Assembly: GCA_002694685.1 (NCBI GenBank)
Contig: NZMW01000001.1
Location: 186,001 to 250,000 of the forward strand
DNA from: Balneola sp.
GTDB taxonomy: Bacteria > Bacteroidota > Rhodothermia > Balneolales > Balneolaceae
Direction: 5' to 3'
DNA: 64,000 bases
Shown here: positions 7,797 through 33,721 of the stretch, in pieces
Layout of the letters: every line of letters begins with the position of its first letter
Position numbering within the stretch: position 1 is the stretch's first letter
Translations under genes and position numbers: made by a program
Notes under the pieces: generated by a model
What the model was told of the DNA's origin: nothing
The model's input: only the letters and a program-made list of their open reading frames with translations
Database searches by the model: none

Positions 7797-8858
7797 TTGA
7801 GTTCAACACTGTACGTCAACTTTTCCAAAATTGGTCATAACCTTGAGGCAGTGAATGCAAAGATTGGTCCGGGAGTGCAGCGCATGGCTGTGGTGAAAGA
7901 TGAAGCTTATGGGCATGGAATGATACCGGTTGCTGAATACCTCCAAGATAAGGTTGAATGGTTTTGTGTAGCTCGAATTGATGAAGCAGTAAAGCTGAGA
8001 GAAGCCGGAATAAAGCTTCCGATTTTGGTTTTTGAAATTCCCCCACCTGGAAAAGAAAAGCTATTTAAAGAACATAATATTACAGCCAGCATTTCTGACC
8101 TATCCGTTTTTGAGAGGCTTGAAGCAGGAACAGATTGCCATCTTCATTTTGATACGGGCATGTTTAGGTTAGGAATATTGCCTGAAGATGCCGAGTCTAC
8201 TCTTGAGAAAATGCATACATATAGCCACCTAAATTACACCGGTATCTACACACACTTTGCAAACTCTGATGAAGCAAATCAGCCCAGGGTAGAAGTACAG
8301 CTTGAGAGTTTTAAAGAGATCCAATCTCAATTTCCTCAAAATCTATTGACCCATACTTGTAACAGCGGCGCTATTTTTTATTATGATGATAAAGATGTTT
8401 TTTTTGATGCTGTACGTCCCGGAGTTTGTTTGTATGGATATGCACCGGGATCGGTTGAAATTCCTGAGTTGAAACCGGTTGTGGAGTGGAAGTCAGACCT
8501 GGTTCAGATAAAGAAAATAAAGAAGGGGGATTTGGTGGGTTATGGAAGTCGCTGGCAAGCTCCTGAAAACGGCTGGTTAGGCATTATCTCTGTAGGATAC
8601 TCCGATGGGATTTTCCGTGGATTGAGCGGTAAATTCAGGGTTGAAATAGAAGGCAAAACCTACCAACAGGTGGGGACCATTAGTATGGATTACGTAGCCG
8701 TTTACTTAGAAAATGACATCCACGAAGTTGGAACTGAAGTTACGTTATTGAAAAATGGAGAGCTTTCTGCTAAGGAATGGGCCAAAGAGCTAAATACAAT
8801 TCCTTACGAAATAACCACTGCAATCTCACCTAAAGTGAAAAGAGTCTACAGAGACTAA
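7797..8858 (+). CDS. alr: Alanine racemase
   Basis: A PLP enzyme that interconverts L- and D-alanine for peptidoglycan; 353 residues, family-typical. The PLP lysine is K34 in AVVKDEAYGHG (the usual form is VVKANAYGHG). The second catalytic base is Y268 in ISVGYSDG. HFDTGMFRLG, the 'THFANSD' motif and SMDYVAV are further family signatures. The start is TTG at 7797: no ATG lies close enough to keep the N-terminal strand, and GAGGT at 7785-7789, overlapping the stop of the upstream gene, is a good ribosome binding site. The stop overlaps by 4 bases the stop of the convergent FKBP-like gene. Confidence 0.95.
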   Translation: MSSTLYVNFSKIGHNLEAVNAKIGPGVQRMAVVKDEAYGHGMIPVAEYLQDKVEWFCVARIDEAVKLREAGIKLPILVFEIPPPGKEKLFKEHNITASISDLSVFERLEAGTDCHLHFDTGMFRLGILPEDAESTLEKMHTYSHLNYTGIYTHFANSDEANQPRVEVQLESFKEIQSQFPQNLLTHTCNSGAIFYYDDKDVFFDAVRPGVCLYGYAPGSVEIPELKPVVEWKSDLVQIKKIKKGDLVGYGSRWQAPENGWLGIISVGYSDGIFRGLSGKFRVEIEGKTYQQVGTISMDYVAVYLENDIHEVGTEVTLLKNGELSAKEWAKELNTIPYEITTAISPKVKRVYRD

Positions 8859-24673: not shown

Positions 24674-24705
24674 AATAGGCATAGCTTCTAAAGGCTATGC
24701 CTATT
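24674..24705 (+). terminator. Perfect 12-bp hairpin between binding protein and receptor genes
   Basis: AATAGGCATAGC (24674-24685), an 8-base loop and GCTATGCCTATT (24694-24705) pair without mismatch. What follows (TCAAATAATATTCTT) is T-poor, so it would act as a partial terminator, an RNA end that protects the upstream message, or a processing site. The in-frame ATG at 24697 lies inside the right arm, which argues against it as a start. Confidence 0.65.
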
Positions 24706-24720
24706 TCAAATAATATTCTT

Positions 24721-27462
24721 ATGAAGGTATTCACAGTTTTTAAAGGACTACTTTATCTTTTTGTCTTCCTGCTTGCCACAAATTCCGTATCTGCATTTCA
24801 AACCGGGAAAATTGCTGGCGAAGTTAAAGATGAATCCGGCGATCCCTTAATTGGTGTTTCCGTTTATATTGAAGGAACTACTAAAGGGATAAACTCTGAC
24901 GTTGATGGCAGATATAACATTAATAATGTTGATGCAGGAACGTATGTAGTAATTTTTCAATACTTGGGATACGCTACATATAGAGTTGAAAACGTAGAGG
25001 TATTTGTTGATCAAACAACAAGAATTGATGCTACACTTAAAGAATCAGTAATAGAAGGTGAAGAAGTTGTTGTAACAGCTGAAAGGCCAATTGTAGAAAA
25101 AGATAGAACTACAACTACAGCCTACATCAGTTCAGAACAATTAGAAGATTTACCGGTTGTTAACTTATCAGATGCTATTAATAATCAGGCCGGTGTTGTA
25201 GATGGTCACTTCCGAGGAGGGAGGACAGGTGAAGTTGCCTATTTGGTAAATGGCGTACCTATTAATAATGCATATAACAATTCTGCTGCATTTACAGTTG
25301 AGCAGAACATGGTTTCTAGTCTCCAGGTTATTAGTGGTGTTTTTAATGCAGAGTATGGACAGGCCTTAAGTGGTGTTGTAGATATTGTAACTAAGGGTGT
25401 TCCAGAAGATTGGTCAGGTAATTTCCTAGCGTATACAGGTAATATTGTAAGTAATAGAGAACTTGAATTTATAAGTCGAGAAACAGGTCCGGGACCATTT
25501 CTCGCAAGTGATGATTTTGTCAGTGAAACAGTTTCATATACTGAAGCTGCTCCCTTTTTAGAGAACAGAGATGTTCAGGTCTCAATTGGAGGCCCTATTA
25601 TAGATGAAAAACTGGGTGTTCGTGTATCCCTCAGATACCTTAAAGACCCTGGTCATCTTATTGGAAAAGACTTATTCCGACCTTCTGATCAGTCCTTTGG
25701 GCTAAGTAACAGTGCGAGGAATAATTGGCTTATTGAATCTACCGGAACCGGTGATTATGTATCCATGAACTACCAAGATCGGTATTCTCTAAACTCGTCA
25801 CTTGTTTATGAAGTAAACAGCCGCTTTAAAATTGATTACAACTTGTTTCTTCAAAAATCGGACGGTCAAGGTTATAACCACGCTTTTAAATACAACCCTA
25901 ATGGAGTAAACGAATACCATAACCTTTCTCAGAATCATATTTTGGGAATGAAGTATGTATTTGGTCAGAAATCTTTCGCCAACCTTTCGTTTAGTTACCT
26001 AAATGATACAGGTGGTTCTTGGTTGCATACTCCACCGGAAGATTCTTTAAACCTTTCCAGTGCTTATGTACCTGTAGAGCAAAACACTCAGCAGGGTAGA
26101 GAAGCTTTTGCTGTTGGAGGGAACCAACTATTTTCTACACGTGATATAGTTCAGACTTCCGGTGTTGTTGGAAGTTTTACTTCACAGCTAAACAGTGTAG
26201 TGTCTATTAAGACTGGCTTTTCGGGAAGATTTCATAATCTAGACGTTAATACTTTTGGTATCACAGTGTTGAATGACGAGCCAAGAGTTAACGACAGCCC
26301 GTATGACACCTATGCTCTTGACGTCAGCCCTTATGAAGCTGCAGCATATGCTCAAACAAAAATTGAGTATCCAAACCTGATTGTTAATGCAGGTCTTCGA
26401 GCTGACTATTTTAATCCAAATTTTACAGTGCCAAGAGATTGGACACAGGCTTCAAGAGCAACGATTTCTGACCCAGAGAATCCGACAGAAACAATTTCTA
26501 ACAGGGTTGAGGCTGATGACACTTTTCAATTGAGTCCTCGCTTAGGAATCGCATTCCCAATTTCTGAAACAGGAGTAATGCGCTTTTCAGCGGGATTATT
26601 CTTTCAAACACCTCAGTTGTCTATTCTTTATACCAACTCTGAGTACGAGAAAAATCCAGCTGCTTCTCCAGCACAGTTTGGTAATGCAAATTTAGATCCT
26701 GAGAGAACACTTTCATTTGAGGTTGGACTACAACAAGGTATTACTGAAACGTTGGGACTCGATTTCACCATTTTCTCTAAGGATATCAGAAACCTTACAG
26801 GTGTTGAGTTTGGACGAGCTTTCGACGGACAGAATATCTCAAGATTTATAAATCTTGACTACGGTACCATTAAGGGAACAACACTATCACTTTACCAAAG
26901 AGGAGATGGCCCAATTTCATGGACTATTGATTACACTCTCCAGTTTGCTAAAGGATCAGCCTCAAACCCAACAGACGCATTTAACCGCTTCCAGGCTGGT
27001 TTAGAGCCTACAATTAAGCTTAGAAGACTTGATTGGGACAGAAGAAATGTATTGAACAACACTCTAACTTACCGAACAAATATTGGGCTTACCATCTCTG
27101 CTATAAGTAGCTTACAGACAGGAACACCATATACAACACTCAGAAGAGACAGAACTTCCTTCATAGATAATAATGAAGATAAGCCTGTTTGGTTTAACAC
27201 TGACATGAGACTTTACTACAAACCGGTAAAATTAAGTCAAGACGTTCAGTTCTTCCTCCAAATTGATAACGTTTTCGATACCAGAGCTCAGTGGTCGGTA
27301 TTCAATGACACCGGAGTTTCATACGAATCCGAAAGACTGGCTGATATCCAAAGAGGTAATTCTATTCCCGGTGGTTTGAATAGCTTCGAAGAATTCATCT
27401 ACAATCAGTCAATGGAAGGTCCTCCAAGAACTGTTAAAGCAGGACTTAGATATACATTTTGA
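24721..27462 (+). CDS. TonB-dependent outer-membrane receptor with carboxypeptidase-regulatory-like domain
   Basis: I chose ATG 24721 because the upstream ATG 24697 is inside a hairpin. This start gives a clean signal peptide (residues 1-25) and a 913-residue protein. A CarboxypepD_reg-like domain (about 29-107, GEVKDESGDPLIGVSVYIEG) is followed by a TonB-box-like stretch EEVVVTAERP (about 114-123), the plug (about 125-228, AYLVNGVPINN, EYGQALSGVVDIVTKG) and a long beta-barrel ending in RYTF, the terminal aromatic needed for assembly. This is the energy-driven import pore for an oligosaccharide or similar solute. No SusD gene follows. The end touches the next gene's open frame. Confidence 0.93.
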   Translation: MKVFTVFKGLLYLFVFLLATNSVSAFQTGKIAGEVKDESGDPLIGVSVYIEGTTKGINSDVDGRYNINNVDAGTYVVIFQYLGYATYRVENVEVFVDQTTRIDATLKESVIEGEEVVVTAERPIVEKDRTTTTAYISSEQLEDLPVVNLSDAINNQAGVVDGHFRGGRTGEVAYLVNGVPINNAYNNSAAFTVEQNMVSSLQVISGVFNAEYGQALSGVVDIVTKGVPEDWSGNFLAYTGNIVSNRELEFISRETGPGPFLASDDFVSETVSYTEAAPFLENRDVQVSIGGPIIDEKLGVRVSLRYLKDPGHLIGKDLFRPSDQSFGLSNSARNNWLIESTGTGDYVSMNYQDRYSLNSSLVYEVNSRFKIDYNLFLQKSDGQGYNHAFKYNPNGVNEYHNLSQNHILGMKYVFGQKSFANLSFSYLNDTGGSWLHTPPEDSLNLSSAYVPVEQNTQQGREAFAVGGNQLFSTRDIVQTSGVVGSFTSQLNSVVSIKTGFSGRFHNLDVNTFGITVLNDEPRVNDSPYDTYALDVSPYEAAAYAQTKIEYPNLIVNAGLRADYFNPNFTVPRDWTQASRATISDPENPTETISNRVEADDTFQLSPRLGIAFPISETGVMRFSAGLFFQTPQLSILYTNSEYEKNPAASPAQFGNANLDPERTLSFEVGLQQGITETLGLDFTIFSKDIRNLTGVEFGRAFDGQNISRFINLDYGTIKGTTLSLYQRGDGPISWTIDYTLQFAKGSASNPTDAFNRFQAGLEPTIKLRRLDWDRRNVLNNTLTYRTNIGLTISAISSLQTGTPYTTLRRDRTSFIDNNEDKPVWFNTDMRLYYKPVKLSQDVQFFLQIDNVFDTRAQWSVFNDTGVSYESERLADIQRGNSIPGGLNSFEEFIYNQSMEGPPRTVKAGLRYTF

Positions 27463-27512
27463 TGTTAAAAAAATTAGAAATCAGAGAAACAAAGAATATC
27501 AGACAGACAAGT

Positions 27513-30500
27513 ATGAAGAAGAGTAGAAATTTATTCCTGATCATATGCATGCTCTTATTTTCAGGAAGCCTAATGGCGCAAGGAATTCCTGATGAGTATA
27601 ATGGAGTAATTTATCGTGGTGAATCTGAGTCGATAGCTAGGGGAGTGCTGGATGGAAACCTTATCCAAACTAACTTCCGAAATCATGGTGAGTTTTCCAG
27701 ATGGAATGACATTCCGTGGGGAGTTTGGCCTCGAGATATCGGTGGTCGCCATATTGATGGAGTAGGTGTTATTATTGCCGGTTTTGTAAACGGTAATCGT
27801 TCAGATTATCCTGATTTCTATAATGGAGCCGCTGATACCCTTTTGAATCCGGTCATCATCAACTATAGACAAGCTGGATTACGACAAAGCCCTTTTACAG
27901 GAGAGGCATGGGGATGGCTTCCGCTTCCGGGATTTAATAACCCAGAAAGAGTAGATCCGGTTACATCCGTTCTCACTCCAACTCCGGCCTTAAGTACGGA
28001 TCCTAGCTCTTGGCCAGAATTTTGGCCTGACAGGCTGAATGAATCTGACGCTGGATGGCCAGGAACCTGGAATGGTCGTGATGGTCGTTTAGCAAATGCT
28101 GATCAGGAGTCTTTTTATGTGATGGATGACTTTTCTGATGACGAATATGCAGTAGATCCTGAAACGGGCGAACCATACAGTCCATTTGGAGTGTATTATC
28201 CAAGTCCTCAGTCAGATTCTACTATGGGTGGTTTAGGCTTACAAATGCAGGTCCGTGTTTTCCAATGGGCAAACATACTTGCTGAGGATACTATGTTTTT
28301 GATCTACAGAATTACAAACAAAGGAGACTTCGATCAAGAGCGCCTTTATTTTGTTCAGATTGTAGATTACGGATTAGGTAATGAGGAAGATGATGATAAC
28401 GCCGCTTATGATCCCTTACTTGATGTTGTATATGGTTGGGATAGTAATGGAATAGGTACGCCGACAACCGGAGGCGGTAACTATGAATTGGGATATACGG
28501 GTTTTGCCTTTCTTGAATCTCCGGCTGATAGCGATGATTTAGTTGATGCTGATCAGGACGGTATTACAGATGAATCTCGATTTGATAATAATATTATGAC
28601 GCCTATCGTTGGACAAGCCGCAATCGAGGCAGAGGTTGAGGCACGATACGACCGTGCAGCGTTTGAAAATTACTATGGTCCTTTAGAAGATCGCCCGGCT
28701 TACATTGCAGGTATTTGGTACCCTGAAGATGAAGAATTAGACTGGGTAGGTTATTCTGATGAAAATAATAATGGTGTTTATGATCAAGGCGAATTAATAA
28801 ACGATGATTATGGCCGAGATGGTCTTGGACCTTTTGACTTAGATTATGTAGGTCCTGACGAAGGAGAAGCTGATGGAATGCCTACTCAAGGAGAGCCTAA
28901 CTTTAATGAATTGGATGTTGATGAATCAGATCAGATTGGCTTAACAGGTTTTGACTTGAACACCCGTCCATTTTACGAAAGTGGTAATAACCTTAGAGAT
29001 GATACCTGGCTATTCGAGCGTATTGTTTTGAGTGAGTTTCCACTTGGCCAAGAGCCGGTACAATCTGTTGCAGATGATGAGCCATTTGCGCTTTTTATGT
29101 CAGGAGAAGTACAACTTTCCAGCGAGAATACTCCAAATGGCAAGTCAACAGACTTCTTCTCTACAGCATGGATTTTTGGTGATAATGAGGAAGATTTCTT
29201 CAAAAATAGAAGAACTGTTCAAAACATTTATAATGCTGATTATACGTTTGCTCAACCCCCAACTACACCTATACTTACTGCAGATGCAGGAGATAGAAGA
29301 GTAGTACTATCATGGGATGAGGCAGCAGTTGAGAGTTATGACCGTTTTCTTCAGGATTTTGATTTTGAGGGCTTCAAGTTATTCCGCAGTACAAATAATG
29401 TATTTACGGACGCCAGAACTATTACGGATGTAAATGGTGCTCCTACTTATTATGATCCAATTGCACAATTTGACTTGGATAACGATATCAGTGGCACTGT
29501 TCCGGTATTGGAAGGCGATGCAATTTTTGATCTTGGAAGCAACACAGGTCTACAATTCAACTATGTTGATACTACCGTCACAAATGGTAAAACTTACTAT
29601 TACGCTATCGTAGCTTACGACAGAGGCTTTCAACCTGAAGATGGCTCAACCGCTTTAGGTATTGATCCTCAGGAAAATACCTTCAACATTTCTGTAGATT
29701 TAGCTGGTAATGTAACAGGGACTTCAGTAAACGCAGCTGTAGTTGTTCCTAAGACAAATCCACTTGGGTATACTTTAGGTGGGTCAACTACTGATCTTAG
29801 CACTTTAACAACTGGTGATGGTACAGGAAGGGCTAATGTGAACATTGTATCTGAAAATCTAATTGATGAATCAAAGCAATACCAAGTTAACTTCTTTGAC
29901 ACGATGTCAACTTCAGGAGATTTTAGAAATACTTCAGGCTTTGAAATGGTTGAGTTAACAACTTCAGATACAATTATAGCACGTACTGAGTTTACACCTT
30001 CAACCAGTGTAATTGATGGATTTACCTTTGAAATGGAGAATAATCCACCTACTGAGGTTATTGATAGTAGAACCGGATATATCTCTAATTCAGGATCAGA
30101 GAATGAATTATTCAGTCTTAATCCAAATGAACTGGATGGACTGGAAACAGACTGGGTAATTACACTAACCAAAAATATTCTTACACCAACAGGAATCTCA
30201 ACAGGGGGATTTGTAAGAAGCGATTCTGACTTCGAACTCACATGGGTAGGACCCAATGATACGCAGTACTCGCCTCCTTTTATATTGGGTGGGCAATTTA
30301 CTAGAATCGATATACCGGTCTTTGCCAGAAATATTAGTACTGATACGGATGTAGTACTTTTAGTAATTGACCAAGATGAAAATGGTGAATTCAATTCAGG
30401 TGACAACTTAGTAGTTACTGAGCGACAGCCAAACGGCCAGTATAGATATAGGTATAACCTTCAATTCAATGCACAAGGTAGTGGAACTCCTCCTTCTGCT

Positions 30501-30917
30501 GGTGATAAGATCCGTATATCAAGTACTCGTTCATTTGGTAACGGAGATACATTCCAGTTTGGAGTTACTAAAGCCTCTATTGATAACGAGCTTGCTTCGT
30601 CTCAAATGGATGATATTTATGTTGCCCCGAATCCATACATAGGTGCTGCTGAATGGGAGCGAAGTTCAGGACAAGTTGGGCGTGGAGAAAGGAAGATATA
30701 CTTCTACAATCTACCCCGAAAATGTACAATCAGAATTTTCAACGTTAGAGGTGAATTGATTAACACTCTTAACCATGACGGTGCAATTGATGACGGTGCT
30801 ATTTCCTGGGATTTAAGGACTGCTAATAATGAAGATATAGCATACGGGGTCTATTTCTATCACGTATCAGCAGAAGGGATAGGCGAATATGTAGACAAAT
30901 TTGCAATCGTCAAGTAG
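27513..30917 (+). CDS. Large secreted protein with T9SS-type C-terminus and Ca2+-loop-like repeats
   Basis: The frame is open from a TTG at 27459, but ATG 27513 starts directly at a signal peptide (KKSRNLFLIICMLLFSGSLMAQ), giving 1134 residues. There are no recognised catalytic residues. Acidic loops resembling calcium-binding DxDxDG repeats occur at DADQDGITDE, DENNNGVYDQGE and DQDENGEFNSGD. A fibronectin-like segment (APTTPILTADAGDRRVVLSW) lies mid-protein. The end (VAPNPYIGA ... IRIFNVRGELINTL ... GVYFYHV) is a T9SS sorting domain with the usual APNP entry and GxY late strand. It lies between the receptor and a PorV-like barrel, so a surface complex with them is a reasonable inference. Its function is unknown. 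Confidence 0.7.
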   Translation: MKKSRNLFLIICMLLFSGSLMAQGIPDEYNGVIYRGESESIARGVLDGNLIQTNFRNHGEFSRWNDIPWGVWPRDIGGRHIDGVGVIIAGFVNGNRSDYPDFYNGAADTLLNPVIINYRQAGLRQSPFTGEAWGWLPLPGFNNPERVDPVTSVLTPTPALSTDPSSWPEFWPDRLNESDAGWPGTWNGRDGRLANADQESFYVMDDFSDDEYAVDPETGEPYSPFGVYYPSPQSDSTMGGLGLQMQVRVFQWANILAEDTMFLIYRITNKGDFDQERLYFVQIVDYGLGNEEDDDNAAYDPLLDVVYGWDSNGIGTPTTGGGNYELGYTGFAFLESPADSDDLVDADQDGITDESRFDNNIMTPIVGQAAIEAEVEARYDRAAFENYYGPLEDRPAYIAGIWYPEDEELDWVGYSDENNNGVYDQGELINDDYGRDGLGPFDLDYVGPDEGEADGMPTQGEPNFNELDVDESDQIGLTGFDLNTRPFYESGNNLRDDTWLFERIVLSEFPLGQEPVQSVADDEPFALFMSGEVQLSSENTPNGKSTDFFSTAWIFGDNEEDFFKNRRTVQNIYNADYTFAQPPTTPILTADAGDRRVVLSWDEAAVESYDRFLQDFDFEGFKLFRSTNNVFTDARTITDVNGAPTYYDPIAQFDLDNDISGTVPVLEGDAIFDLGSNTGLQFNYVDTTVTNGKTYYYAIVAYDRGFQPEDGSTALGIDPQENTFNISVDLAGNVTGTSVNAAVVVPKTNPLGYTLGGSTTDLSTLTTGDGTGRANVNIVSENLIDESKQYQVNFFDTMSTSGDFRNTSGFEMVELTTSDTIIARTEFTPSTSVIDGFTFEMENNPPTEVIDSRTGYISNSGSENELFSLNPNELDGLETDWVITLTKNILTPTGISTGGFVRSDSDFELTWVGPNDTQYSPPFILGGQFTRIDIPVFARNISTDTDVVLLVIDQDENGEFNSGDNLVVTERQPNGQYRYRYNLQFNAQGSGTPPSAGDKIRISSTRSFGNGDTFQFGVTKASIDNELASSQMDDIYVAPNPYIGAAEWERSSGQVGRGERKIYFYNLPRKCTIRIFNVRGELINTLNHDGAIDDGAISWDLRTANNEDIAYGVYFYHVSAEGIGEYVDKFAIVK

Positions 30918-30919
30918 TC

Positions 30920-31999
30920 ATGAAGAATATAAAAAGTAAGATTCTAACACATCAGATTATGAAGCCTCTTTCTACATTAATTGTATTACTCTTTTTAGTT
31001 AGCTCGGTGTCACTACATGCTCAAAGCAGGGTAGGTACTACAGCCGCTCCATTTCTCACACTGGGAGTTGGAGCTAAAGGCTCAGCCTTAGGACACGCGA
31101 ATACCGTGATTACTTCAGGTGCGGAGGGGCTTTTTTGGAACCCCGCAACTATTGCTCTAAAGAATGAGGGTGGTACTTACAGCTCGGGATATCTTTCCTA
31201 TAATCAACTTTTTGTTGATGTCAGCGCCTATGCCTCCGGATTAGTGTTTAATATTTCAGAAGGCAAAAGCTTTGGTATAGGCCTGAACTACCTTGACTAT
31301 GGTAGAATGGATATACGAACGGTAGAACTTCAGGAGGGAACAGGTGCTTCATTTGGTGCTCATGATCTAAGCATTGGATTATCTTATGCTCAAAACCTTA
31401 CCGAATCCTTTTACTTTGGTGGAACGGCTAAGTTAATTCAGCAGAAAATCTATGATATGAGCGCTGAAACCTTTGCATTCGACTTTGGATTTACTCTTTT
31501 AACAGACTATCTAAATGGTATGAAGCTTGGTGCAACCATAAGTAACTTTGGTGGAAGTATGCAGATGGGGGGTATTAACGCTGAGTACCTGATTGATGTT
31601 GATGAAACAAGTGAAGGTAATAATGAATCCGTTCCAGGTCGTATCTTCATGGACGAATGGGATCTGCCGTTATCATTCAGGTTTGGTGTAGCGCTTCCGG
31701 TTATTAAGCAAGACAATTTAGAGCTACTGCTACTGACTGATGCTCAACAAACCAACGATAATGATCTTAATTTAGACACGGGTTCTCAACTCAGCTATAT
31801 CACCAATACAATTAAGTTTCATGCCAGAGCAGGTTATAAAGATCTACTTTTAGGTGATCAGGTTGATTCGCACTTTACATATGGAGCAGGCTTCACACTA
31901 AAAACAGCCAGCGGCGTTGCTCTTGGCTTTGATTTTGCCCAAGTTCCATTTGAGTATTTAGGCAACACGACGTTAATTGATATAAAATTATACTTCTAA
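30920..31999 (+). CDS. PorV/PorQ-family outer-membrane protein
   Basis: The protein has 359 residues. Two starts are possible: ATG 30920, two bases after the preceding stop, or ATG 30959, which begins a clean signal peptide (KPLSTLIVLLFLVSSVSLHAQ). The N-terminal signature TTAAPFLTLGVGAKGSALG, followed by SGAEGLFWNPATIAL, is the PorV/PorQ pattern, and the rest is alternating beta-strands of a FadL-like barrel ending in KLYF. In T9SS, PorV binds sorting-domain cargo at the outer membrane and hands it to the attachment machinery. A dedicated copy next to a T9SS-type exoprotein suggests it handles that protein. It is not proven to be PorV itself. Confidence 0.8.
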   Translation: MKNIKSKILTHQIMKPLSTLIVLLFLVSSVSLHAQSRVGTTAAPFLTLGVGAKGSALGHANTVITSGAEGLFWNPATIALKNEGGTYSSGYLSYNQLFVDVSAYASGLVFNISEGKSFGIGLNYLDYGRMDIRTVELQEGTGASFGAHDLSIGLSYAQNLTESFYFGGTAKLIQQKIYDMSAETFAFDFGFTLLTDYLNGMKLGATISNFGGSMQMGGINAEYLIDVDETSEGNNESVPGRIFMDEWDLPLSFRFGVALPVIKQDNLELLLLTDAQQTNDNDLNLDTGSQLSYITNTIKFHARAGYKDLLLGDQVDSHFTYGAGFTLKTASGVALGFDFAQVPFEYLGNTTLIDIKLYF

Positions 32000-33721
32000 A
32001 TGTTTCAACCCAGTTTATTGAAAAAGAATAGCCACCTACATTTTAAGTGGCTATTCTTTTTTTGTGTTATAGGCTCATCTTTGTTTTTAGCAAACTGTTC
32101 TCAAGAGAAAGAATCCGAACAAGTAATTGCTACTGTTAATGATTCGGAAATTACGGTATCCGATTTTGAACAAAAATATGTTGGTTACCTGATCAAAACA
32201 GGACGAAATGATATTAAGAACGAACGTTATCGATATTTAAGTGAGCTAATTGATAATCTAGCTGTAGCCGATGCGGCTATTCAAAAGAATTATCTAGGCA
32301 ACCAAACTTATCAGGATGCTATTTGGTATCAGAAGAGAAAATCCCTCGCTGATATCTACTTTGTGGATCAAATGAATGAGCGAATTGAAAACCCATCAGA
32401 AGAGGACGTTCGATTAGCTTTCGCCAAGTCAAAACGTAAAGTATATGTAAGGCATCTGTTTTCTAAAGACGAAGACAAACTCTACAGGTATTACAATAGG
32501 CTTGAGGCCGGCGAGAATTTTGTAGACTTGGCCAATGAGTTTTATGGTACTGCAGAGTATGACTCCACGGCTGGCTATCTAGGTCCCATTTCATATTATG
32601 GAATTGATGATAATTTTGCGGAAACAGCTTTTTCGATAAATGAAGGGGGATATTCAGAACCAATAAGAACAAGCTTTGGCTATCATATTATTTATGTGGA
32701 GAAAGTATTGTTTGAGGCTATGTTAACCGAAAGCGAATATCAGATTCGGAAAGAAGGAATTCAGAATAAAGTTAAGCAACGAAATCAAGCTCTCGAGGCT
32801 AATGCTTACATCCGTGATTTGATGAGTAAGGTGAATATAGAAATGAATCGCGAACCCCTTGTCAGTTTGATGGAGGAAATCAGAAATTTACCATCAATAC
32901 AAGAAATAGATCGTGAGCAAGAAGATGGAGACATGGAGGGAGCCACATGGAATGATGGTAAACTCGATGAATTGGCATTAGAAGTTGATGAGCAGTCAGT
33001 ACTAGGGACCTATGTATTGCTTGGTGAAAGAATTGATTTCACCATAGAAGATTATTTGAACTGGCTCCCATATTTGCCTTTAAACGAATCAAGGAACCGA
33101 ACTGGAGCATCAGTAGGAAGAGCGTTGCGTAACGAGGTCTTAATGCGTTTAGCTAAAGAAGAAGGTTATGAAAATGACGATAGAGTCAATAAGAAAGTAA
33201 AAGACCGAGGAATGGAAGTTCTTTCCGATCTATATCAACAGGAACTTATTCAAATAGCATTACAGGACACCTCAGAAACAGAAATCCCGGAGAACTTCCG
33301 CAACCAGGTAATTCGGAATCGAAGTTATAATATTGAGACCAGCTACTGGAAAATTCCTGCTACATCTCTGGAAGAAGCAAAAGTAATCAGACGGGATATT
33401 TTGTCAGGGACTCCTCCGCAAACATTTCCTAACTATACCTCGATAGAGCAGGCAAGTTTGTCGCCAATAGATGCTGATTACAGATTAGTGTCGAAAGCTA
33501 CTGTTGGCTCACCAGTTACAGCAAGTTCTGAAACACAAGGATGGGTGGTATTAAATGTAAACGACAAAGAGTTTATTCAAATTTCTGTGGATGACCCAGG
33601 TAAAGAGGTTGAGAAAATGTATCGCGTATTAAACTTCCTAGACACAAAAATAGATAGCATGCGATCTGCTTCAGATGTGGTCATCGATACAACGCTATTT
33701 GACGAAATTTATGAGCTTTAA
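32000..33721 (+). CDS. Parvulin-type (PPIC) peptidyl-prolyl isomerase lipoprotein, SurA/PrsA-like
   Basis: The protein has 573 residues. The ATG directly follows the preceding stop; TTG at codon 7 is an alternative. A hydrophobic signal ends at the lipobox SLFLANC (about 28-34). A helical chaperone-like region (VNDSEITVSDFEQKYVGYL) precedes one PPIC domain (about 142-240, VYVRHLFSKDEDKLYR, GYLGPISYYG, IRTSFGYHIIYVE), and a second, poorly conserved helical and PPIC-like half follows. SurA-like proteins help outer-membrane barrels fold. As the last gene of the uptake run it may serve the receptor and PorV-like barrel. Unusually, an intrinsic-terminator-like hairpin lies in its signal-peptide codons. 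Confidence 0.88.
   Translation: MFQPSLLKKNSHLHFKWLFFFCVIGSSLFLANCSQEKESEQVIATVNDSEITVSDFEQKYVGYLIKTGRNDIKNERYRYLSELIDNLAVADAAIQKNYLGNQTYQDAIWYQKRKSLADIYFVDQMNERIENPSEEDVRLAFAKSKRKVYVRHLFSKDEDKLYRYYNRLEAGENFVDLANEFYGTAEYDSTAGYLGPISYYGIDDNFAETAFSINEGGYSEPIRTSFGYHIIYVEKVLFEAMLTESEYQIRKEGIQNKVKQRNQALEANAYIRDLMSKVNIEMNREPLVSLMEEIRNLPSIQEIDREQEDGDMEGATWNDGKLDELALEVDEQSVLGTYVLLGERIDFTIEDYLNWLPYLPLNESRNRTGASVGRALRNEVLMRLAKEEGYENDDRVNKKVKDRGMEVLSDLYQQELIQIALQDTSETEIPENFRNQVIRNRSYNIETSYWKIPATSLEEAKVIRRDILSGTPPQTFPNYTSIEQASLSPIDADYRLVSKATVGSPVTASSETQGWVVLNVNDKEFIQISVDDPGKEVEKMYRVLNFLDTKIDSMRSASDVVIDTTLFDEIYEL
32021..32063 (+). terminator. Perfect 15-bp hairpin with T-tract inside the parvulin coding region
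   Basis: AAAAAGAATAGCCAC (32021-32035), an 11-base loop and GTGGCTATTCTTTTT (32047-32061) pair perfectly, and seven T's run through 32063. It has every feature of an intrinsic terminator but lies in codons 8-22 of the parvulin gene. It should end most transcripts after the PorV-like gene and leave low expression of the isomerase. Translating ribosomes would melt it, so coupling could control read-through. Confidence 0.75.

What the first reader, a model, noticed from the sequence alone, without database searches (positions are those of the whole stretch)
32021..32063. Perfect terminator-type hairpin embedded in the signal-peptide codons of a parvulin lipoprotein
A 15-bp perfect stem with a seven-T tail lies in codons 8-22, at the junction with the PorV-like gene. 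Transcription should mostly end there unless ribosomes melt the stem. This could tie expression of the folding factor to translation of the preceding gene. Intrinsic terminators are usually kept outside coding DNA; the 15 perfect pairs argue for selection.
Basis: seen in the sequence. Interest (0 to 1): 0.65.

Follow-up and report, generated by a model that had tools for sequence, protein, structure and literature searches.

The report
Terminator hidden inside signal-peptide codons
A stop-transcription hairpin appears to sit inside the first codons of a gene for a secreted folding helper, and a set of related bacteria keep the hairpin even where its letters and the encoded amino acids differ, so one short stretch of DNA may serve both as protein code and as a partial off-switch.

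Summary
The hairpin is real: a 15-bp perfect stem, 11-nt loop and T7 tract at 32021-32063. It lies in codons 8-22 of a SurA-like parvulin lipoprotein whose ATG abuts the TAA of a PorV-like gene. It is not chance. Ten of 19 orthologues in its clade (one of the other nine unreadable) carry a stem with a T-rich tail 20-27 nt after the ATG; the six core pairs form in 60 of 60 cells. Between the two Gracilimonas-group genomes and the other eight, three core pairs differ on both sides and four residues differ, yet pairing is kept. In all ten, at most 38 of 1000 synonymous recodings fold as well. Six more cases at this gene junction have other stem sequences; 43 of 60 junctions have none. In length, energy, tail and distance from the stop codon the site fits this genome's own terminator-like hairpins; its loop is longer. 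Best reading: porV's intrinsic terminator, overlapped by the next gene's start, so that every full-length lipoprotein mRNA must read through it, probably setting a low lipoprotein-to-PorV ratio. Coupling to translation is possible but untested; the E. coli yardstick is mixed. There are no expression data: termination is inferred.

The parts
27459..30917 (+). Large secreted-type ORF (1152 aa as listed), upstream gene of the presumed operon
   Evidence: ORF list; no Pfam family at E 0.01; by eye its C-terminal end resembles that of the ORF before the PorV-like gene in L043
30920..31999 (+). PorV-like outer-membrane protein gene (359 aa), stop TAA 31997-31999
   Evidence: Pfam PorV PF19572, 35.5 bits, cut-off 27; an ORF with a PorV-type C-terminal end (short motif) was found upstream in 60 of 71 class-wide loci
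32000..33721 (+). SurA-like parvulin lipoprotein gene (573 aa)
   Evidence: Pfam Rotamase PF00639 E 6.4e-11; relatives
32000..32002 (+). Start codon ATG, zero gap after the porV stop
32000..32095 (+). Signal-peptide codons (MFQPSLLKKNSHLHFKWLFFFCVIGSSLFLAN), lipobox Cys at 32096-32098; judged by eye, no predictor run
   Evidence: sequence; Cys33 invariant in alignment A1 of 12 orthologues
32021..32035 (+). 5' arm of terminator-type hairpin, AAAAAGAATAGCCAC
32036..32046 (+). Loop, 11 nt
32047..32061 (+). 3' arm of terminator-type hairpin, GTGGCTATTCTTTTT
32057..32063 (+). T7 tract, five T shared with the stem base
   Evidence: 6-8 T in 8 nt after the core in the 12 hairpins measured

Best explanation
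The hairpin is the intrinsic terminator of the porV transcript, placed where this genome puts such hairpins (about 20-30 nt after the stop codon), and the next gene's reading frame begins upstream of it, at the porV stop. RNA polymerase leaving porV meets the hairpin and T7 tract. Most transcripts end there, giving a porV mRNA with a stable 3' hairpin; a minority read through and make the parvulin lipoprotein. Because the start codon lies before the hairpin, no mRNA for the full-length lipoprotein can avoid it, whatever its promoter. The element therefore acts as a fixed-ratio valve: much PorV, little folding factor. Ribosomes finishing porV, or starting the lipoprotein, may raise readthrough somewhat. 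Shown: the hairpin, its place, its conservation with double changes that also change residues, its likeness to local terminator-like hairpins, and its recurrence. Inferred: that it terminates, how efficiently, and the ratio-setting purpose.
For: (1) Position and shape recur: 10 of 19 rows of the window's ortholog clade have a stem plus 6-8 T in 8 nt starting at ATG+20 to +27. (2) On the 10-row alignment 78.5% of 177 cells pair and 18 cells carry double changes, neither reached by any of 500 shuffles; slid controls pair 32-60%. (3) Three core pairs differ on both sides between G000/G001 and the other eight: Ser-His and Trp-Leu in place of Gly-Cys and Gln-Pro (Arg-Pro in G015 and G031). (4) Synonymous recoding: MFE z -2.1 to -3.6 in all ten, 1 to 38 of 1000 recodings as good; z -1.8 to +0.1 in seven hairpin-free relatives. 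(5) In the eight GGCTGC-type genes 7 of 110 invariant residues also have an invariant codon; 3 of the 4 invariant residues in the first 45 columns do (Gly GGC 8/8, Cys TGC 8/8, Phe TTT 8/8), Fisher p 6e-4. (6) Recurrence with other stems: G057, G216 and G219/G229/G230/G233, with two double-changed pairs in the last group. (7) 28 terminator-like hairpins after ORFs of this genome: median 25 nt after the stop (quartiles 22-29), WC 11, T 7 of 8, -17.5 kcal/mol; the site: 20 nt, 15, 7, -19.9. (8) T-rich side: + strand 6-8 of 8 in 12 of 12; - strand 7 in the two genomes of the window's group and 3-5 in the other ten.
Against: No RNA data. The T tract is partly explained by Phe codons; I did not test whether it exceeds the peptide's expectation. 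Two of the five measures are less striking: pairs with double change 16 of 500 shuffles, further pair types 224 of 500. Longest perfect stem is not exceptional under recoding in G031 (656 of 1000), G033 (134), G018 (114) and G015 (71). 43 of the 60 junctions with a PorV-type end have no such stem. The three core double changes separate one pair of genomes from the rest, so they may be one episode, and their direction is open. In the f19 set (4 sequences) covariation is modest (37 of 500 shuffles as high; slid controls pair 38-83%) and MFE z is only -1.7 and -1.4 for G230 and G233; G057's stem is matched by 116 of 1000 recodings.
Confidence: 0.6

Rival explanations
1. Ribosome-gated attenuator: readthrough depends on a ribosome that finishes porV and restarts at the abutting ATG, or starts the lipoprotein, and melts the stem; lipoprotein synthesis then follows porV translation.
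For: porV stop to stem is 20-28 nt in 11 of 16 cases, inside or at the edge of the 27-nt range in which a ribosome at the stop codon represses a terminator in E. coli; ATG lies at -1 to +1 nt from the stop in the ten clade cases and G057. Translation through a terminator raises readthrough in the S. gallolyticus pil1 leader (passages).
Against: In E. coli a terminator 30 bp into the next ORF lost only about 10% efficiency through that ORF's translation. Five cases have stop-to-stem distances of 39-44 nt. No conserved antiterminator partner upstream. Whether transcription and translation are coupled in this phylum I did not find out.
Confidence: 0.2
2. mRNA 3'-end stabiliser: the hairpin marks a processing or exonuclease-stop site that protects porV mRNA, and the T tract is incidental.
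For: Stem conserved; would equally favour an end after porV.
Against: T-rich tail of 6-8 in 8 nt on the downstream side in 12 of 12 hairpins measured, less on the other side in ten of them; local terminator-like hairpins look similar.
Confidence: 0.1
3. Peptide-driven accident: Lys-rich n-region (AAA) and Phe-rich h-region (TTT) of a signal peptide happen to pair.
For: A-rich and T-rich codons supply outer A-U pairs; G000 has 38 of 1000 recodings with as low an energy; stem length is unexceptional in G031.
Against: A stem as long is found in 4 of 1000 recodings of G000, 0 of G001, 8 of G021; invariant codons are concentrated in the hairpin; residues differ while pairing is kept.
Confidence: 0.04
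4. Mis-called start: the hairpin is an ordinary intergenic terminator and the lipoprotein starts downstream from its own promoter.
For: One such artefact was found in this genome (L110).
Against: Between hairpin and lipobox Cys the window frame has no ATG or GTG, and its one TTG (32081) leaves five residues before the Cys; the basic residues of the signal peptide are inside the hairpin codons; G021 has no ATG, GTG or TTG there by inspection. The frame is kept without indels between the arms in ten rows.
Confidence: 0.05
5. DNA-level palindrome: a binding site for a dimeric regulator.
For: Two arms about 21 bp apart are compatible with a dyad operator (inference).
Against: U-G pairs in G015 and G031 break the DNA dyad but not the RNA stem; different arm sequences at a similar codon position in other lineages; T tract on one side in ten of 12.
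Confidence: 0.03

Closest known systems
Intrinsic (Rho-independent) terminators
   Same: G-C core, A-U base merging into a T7 tract, 20-28 nt after the upstream stop in 11 of 16 cases; similar to 28 local hairpins
   Different: Lies wholly inside the coding sequence of the next gene, after its start codon, and both arms encode signal-peptide residues; loop longer than the local ones
E. coli pyrBI-type and S. gallolyticus pil1 leader attenuation (PMC3894217, passages; pyrBI only as mentioned in PMC4824070)
   Same: A terminator inside or next to a translated ORF, where ribosomes could open it
   Different: The ORF that spans the hairpin is the structural gene itself, not a leader peptide, and ribosome dependence is untested
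Terminator tR2 construct W48 (PMC4824070 section 12)
   Same: Nearly the same geometry: terminator 30 bp after the start codon of an ORF that follows an upstream gene
   Different: Artificial; tested in E. coli; its ORF ends 16 bp after the terminator
ampC attenuator at the end of the frd operon of E. coli (recalled, not looked up)
   Same: Terminator of an upstream operon also controls the next gene
   Different: As recalled, it lies before the next gene's start codon, not in its codons
ORF-internal 3' ends of E. coli (PMC7815308, passages)
   Same: 3' ends inside coding sequence, one with an intrinsic terminator score
   Different: Other loci in E. coli; the passages I saw do not treat conservation by compensatory change

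Membership tests
Intrinsic terminator | Stable stem with G-C core | tested here: met
   15 WC pairs, 5 G-C, -19.9 kcal/mol for the stem region
Intrinsic terminator | T-rich tract directly after or in the base of the stem | tested here: met
   T7 at 32057-32063; 6-8 T in 8 nt in the 12 hairpins measured
Intrinsic terminator | Lies shortly after a gene end | tested here: met
   20 nt after the porV stop; 28 local examples: median 25, quartiles 22-29
Intrinsic terminator | Releases RNA polymerase | not testable with these tools
   no RNA 3'-end or in vitro data
trp-type attenuator | Separate short leader peptide whose ORF covers the control region | tested here: not met
   The ORF spanning the hairpin is the 573-aa structural gene
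trp-type attenuator | Alternative antiterminator pairing, conserved | tested here: not met
   Exact complements to either arm in the upstream 250 nt reach 5-7 nt at scattered places, and none of 5 nt or more exists in G015 and G042; imperfect pairings were not searched
pyrBI-type attenuator | Terminator within a translated ORF, no antiterminator needed | tested here: met
   In frame in codons 8-22; 16 cases at this junction; translation itself inferred from the ORF
pyrBI-type attenuator | Termination relieved by closely following ribosomes | not testable with these tools
   needs reporters or RNA-seq

The most novel reading that the evidence does not exclude
A leaderless attenuator: the signal-peptide codons of a periplasmic folding factor themselves form the attenuator. 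Transcription ends there unless ribosomes leaving porV restart at the abutting ATG fast enough to melt the stem, so the supply of the folding factor is tied to how briskly its neighbouring outer-membrane barrel is being made. The arrangement may have arisen more than once (five gains or losses on the best tree, at least four forced by starred branches), because signal peptides, basic then hydrophobic, are unusually tolerant of an A-rich / G-C / T-rich hairpin.
Probability: 0.18. Interest if true: 0.78.

Novelty: new variant of a known kind. Interest (0 to 1): 0.56.

Why it matters
Intrinsic terminators are usually sought outside genes. Here a terminator-type hairpin has been kept inside coding DNA in part of a bacterial family, with residues giving way while the pairing holds, and similar cases recur at the same gene junction in other families of the class. 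If it works as proposed, signal peptides can carry a second, RNA-level message, which would explain odd conserved residues in a signal peptide, and the site would be a natural reporter for whether RNA polymerase and ribosomes are coupled in this little-studied group. It also shows how scans that skip coding DNA or limit loop length miss such elements.

Tried and rejected
Chance or low-complexity pairing: disfavoured by shuffles, synonymous recoding and codon invariance. A dispersed repeat or mobile hairpin: the own-genome DNA search gave only the site and its own reverse complement. A known RNA family: Rfam gave seven hits at E up to 1 in 31800-32300 (microRNA, sRNA and IS128 models), all below their gathering scores. 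PorV paralogues as a source: of 16 PorV-like hits in 10 genomes of the genus, the 14 other than the window's own and its G001 orthologue show no stem (6 pairs, 4 G-C) with a T tail just after the stop. Antiterminator: no conserved exact partner. Start-codon artefact: weighed because of L110 and judged unlikely for this gene. The first look at relatives did not turn minus-strand loci round; it was redone. In one search several start codons were mis-called; the scan was redone from the PorV stop. In one search, 71 loci were scanned, 11 dropped for lack of a recognisable PorV-type end, 17 of the remaining 60 flagged, and G220 (6 pairs, poor tail) set aside by me, leaving 16. G024 has a run of N in the region: it counts as lacking the stem and was left out. 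The tree holds 47 of the 71 loci: I left out the 16 partial pieces, G024, G094, G214, G220, G221, G156, G150 and G225. G218 (match begins at the contig end) was not fetched; of the matches without a new locus, 16 were fetched and the others lie in genomes of the order already held. A tmRNA was sought because terminated transcripts would be non-stop for the lipoprotein frame; one match over the cut-off is present, which proves nothing about this site; that search also rang in archaeal controls, so weak matches mean little.

Full report
What is there. The window holds, on the + strand, a large secreted-type ORF (27459-30917), a PorV-like gene (30920-31999) and a 573-aa SurA-like parvulin lipoprotein gene (32000-33721); a PIG-L gene follows on the other strand. 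The lipoprotein ATG touches the porV TAA. In codons 8-22 lies a 15-bp perfect stem, 11-nt loop and T7 tract; the region folds at z -5.2 against shuffles. The consensus scan, which allows loops up to 8 nt, did not list it.

Where it comes from. The window lies in a genome of 3.95 Mb in 17 contigs. Its genus contains a genome, G003, with a contig of 162485 bases, the length of the Gracilimonas mengyeensis DSM 21985 contig NZ_FXTP01000014.1 that holds the same match, so the genus is probably Gracilimonas (inference). Relatives that could be named are mostly metagenome assemblies labelled Balneolaceae, Balneola, Balneolales, Rhodothermia or Bacteroidetes; that the family f1 is Balneolaceae is inferred from these labels.

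Is it chance within this genome? In 464 kb (window plus 400 kb of sample stretches) seven comparable stem+T hairpins lie in same-strand ORFs, and this one has the longest stem. One of the seven was an ordinary terminator under an over-extended ORF.

Conservation. The protein search found matches in 76 of 96 genomes at E 0.001, many of them short or weak. With alignment A1 the family search found 22 of 92 genomes at E 1e-60 and the order search 25 of 128 at 1e-70. In the tree, the window's ortholog clade has 19 rows; ten have a stem with a T-rich tail starting 20-27 nt after the ATG, with the ATG within 1 nt of the porV stop. The nine without form one nested clade, one row of which (G024) is unreadable because of N; this suggests an ancestral hairpin and one loss there.

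Selection on the RNA. In the ten-row alignment 78.5% of 177 cells pair and 18 cells carry double changes; no shuffle of 500 reaches either figure, while two other measures are less striking (pairs with double change, 16 of 500; further pair types, 224 of 500). Sliding the partner lowers pairing to 32-60%. The six core pairs are formed in all ten rows. Three of them are A-U, C-G and A-U in G000/G001 where the other eight have G-C, U-A or U-G, and G-C; with them Ser-His stands for Gly-Cys and Trp-Leu for Gln-Pro (Arg-Pro in G015 and G031). Which state is older is open: the two trees place G000/G001 differently. U-G pairs in G015 and G031 keep an RNA stem but would break a DNA dyad. Keeping each peptide and resampling codons gives energies above the real ones in all ten (z -2.1 to -3.6; 1 to 38 of 1000 as good), while seven hairpin-free relatives lie between -1.8 and +0.1; the cruder longest-perfect-stem measure is not exceptional in G031 (656 of 1000), G033 (134), G018 (114) and G015 (71). 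In the eight GGCTGC-type genes 110 residues are invariant but 7 have an invariant codon; three of those 7 are among the four invariant residues of the first 45 columns (Fisher p 6e-4). A conserved peptide alone does not explain this.

Recurrence. A class search with a distant relative's protein matched 70 of 244 genomes at E 1e-50. Scanning 160 nt from the PorV stop in 71 loci, 60 had a recognisable PorV-type end and 17 a stem+T (at least 6 WC pairs, 4 G-C, 5 T of 8, loop up to 13); 16 remain after I dropped one weak case. In all 17 the best stem lies after a start codon in the lipoprotein frame; none lies between stop and start. Besides the ten these are G057 (another family of the order), G216, and four members of family f19 (G219, G229, G230, G233) with stems such as GGGCGGTG/CACCGCCC and AAGGCAGTG/CACTGCCTT at ATG+17 to +19; G216 begins with GTG and belongs to the same family f19. 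The four show two double-changed pairs, one of them synonymous on both sides, though with four sequences the covariation is weak (37 of 500 shuffles as high; slid controls pair 38-83%). Under recoding their z-scores run from -1.4 to -4.4 and 3 to 9 of 1000 have as long a stem; G216 z -3.5; G057 z -1.65 with 116 of 1000 stems as long. On a 47-row tree the trait needs five changes, at least four forced by starred branches. Forty-three of the 60 junctions lack it.

Why a terminator. Twenty-eight terminator-like hairpins after ORFs in the sampled genome lie a median 25 nt after the stop (quartiles 22-29), with median 11 WC pairs, 7 T of 8 and -17.5 kcal/mol; this site has 20 nt, 15, 7 and -19.9. 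Its 11-nt loop exceeds all 28 (3-8 nt). In the 12 hairpins measured the + side has 6-8 T of 8; the - strand side has 7 in G000 and G001 and 3-5 in the other ten. So it looks like porV's normal terminator with the next gene's start placed in front of it.

Mechanism. Because the start codon precedes the hairpin, every mRNA for the full-length lipoprotein must read through it. The likeliest effect is a fixed, low ratio of lipoprotein to PorV (inference). Ribosome influence is uncertain. In E. coli, tR2 was repressed when it began close to the upstream stop, with 27 nt as the threshold and large sequence dependence (TE about 0.8 at 18 bp in one series and 0.12 at 17 bp in another), and a terminator 30 bp into the following ORF kept all but about 10% of its efficiency despite translation, its transcripts being non-stop (PMC4824070: abstract, sections 9, 11 and 12, and passages). 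Distances here are 20-28 nt in 11 cases and 39-44 in five. Translation-opened terminators do exist, for example S. gallolyticus pil1 (PMC3894217, passages). For runaway transcription I saw passages of PMC13323073; the word start 'bacteroid' does not occur in its main text.

Novelty. Nine paper searches (one search returned nothing) listed, as far as titles and starts of abstracts show, no report of a conserved terminator in signal-peptide codons or of this junction; the library lacks most subscription papers. PMC7815308 (passages) describes ORF-internal 3' ends in E. coli. I rate this a new variant of a known kind: a terminator-type hairpin doing double duty as signal-peptide code.

Noticed in passing
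L080, L082, L083, L084 (just after the stop of a PorV paralogue): Another PorV paralogue in several genomes of the genus is followed by a nearly identical leader (AAACTGC...GCAGAAACAATAACA..., AGGAGCAACTATGAAAAAGGTTACAACC), more conserved than expected of spacer; possible 5' UTR element.
   Followed up: no
L110, about 7965-7991, - strand: An ordinary terminator between two genes lies in an over-extended ORF; the upstream gene's stop codon is inside the hairpin.
   Followed up: yes
L059 (G030), ATG+17 to +34: The orthologue G030, counted as hairpin-free, has a perfect 18-nt palindrome CCCGAACAATTGTTCGGG in its N-terminal codons without a T tail, plus a weaker stem (8 WC pairs) further on.
   Followed up: partly
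L069 (G129): The lipoprotein match has one in-frame TAA; sequencing error or decay cannot be told apart here.
   Followed up: no
window 27459-30917: Large ORF before porV with no Pfam family at E 0.01; by eye its C-terminal end resembles that of the ORF before the PorV-like gene in L043, perhaps a secreted substrate.
   Followed up: no
window 24674-24705, - strand: Another long terminator-like stem (12 pairs, loop 8) listed by the consensus scan.
   Followed up: no
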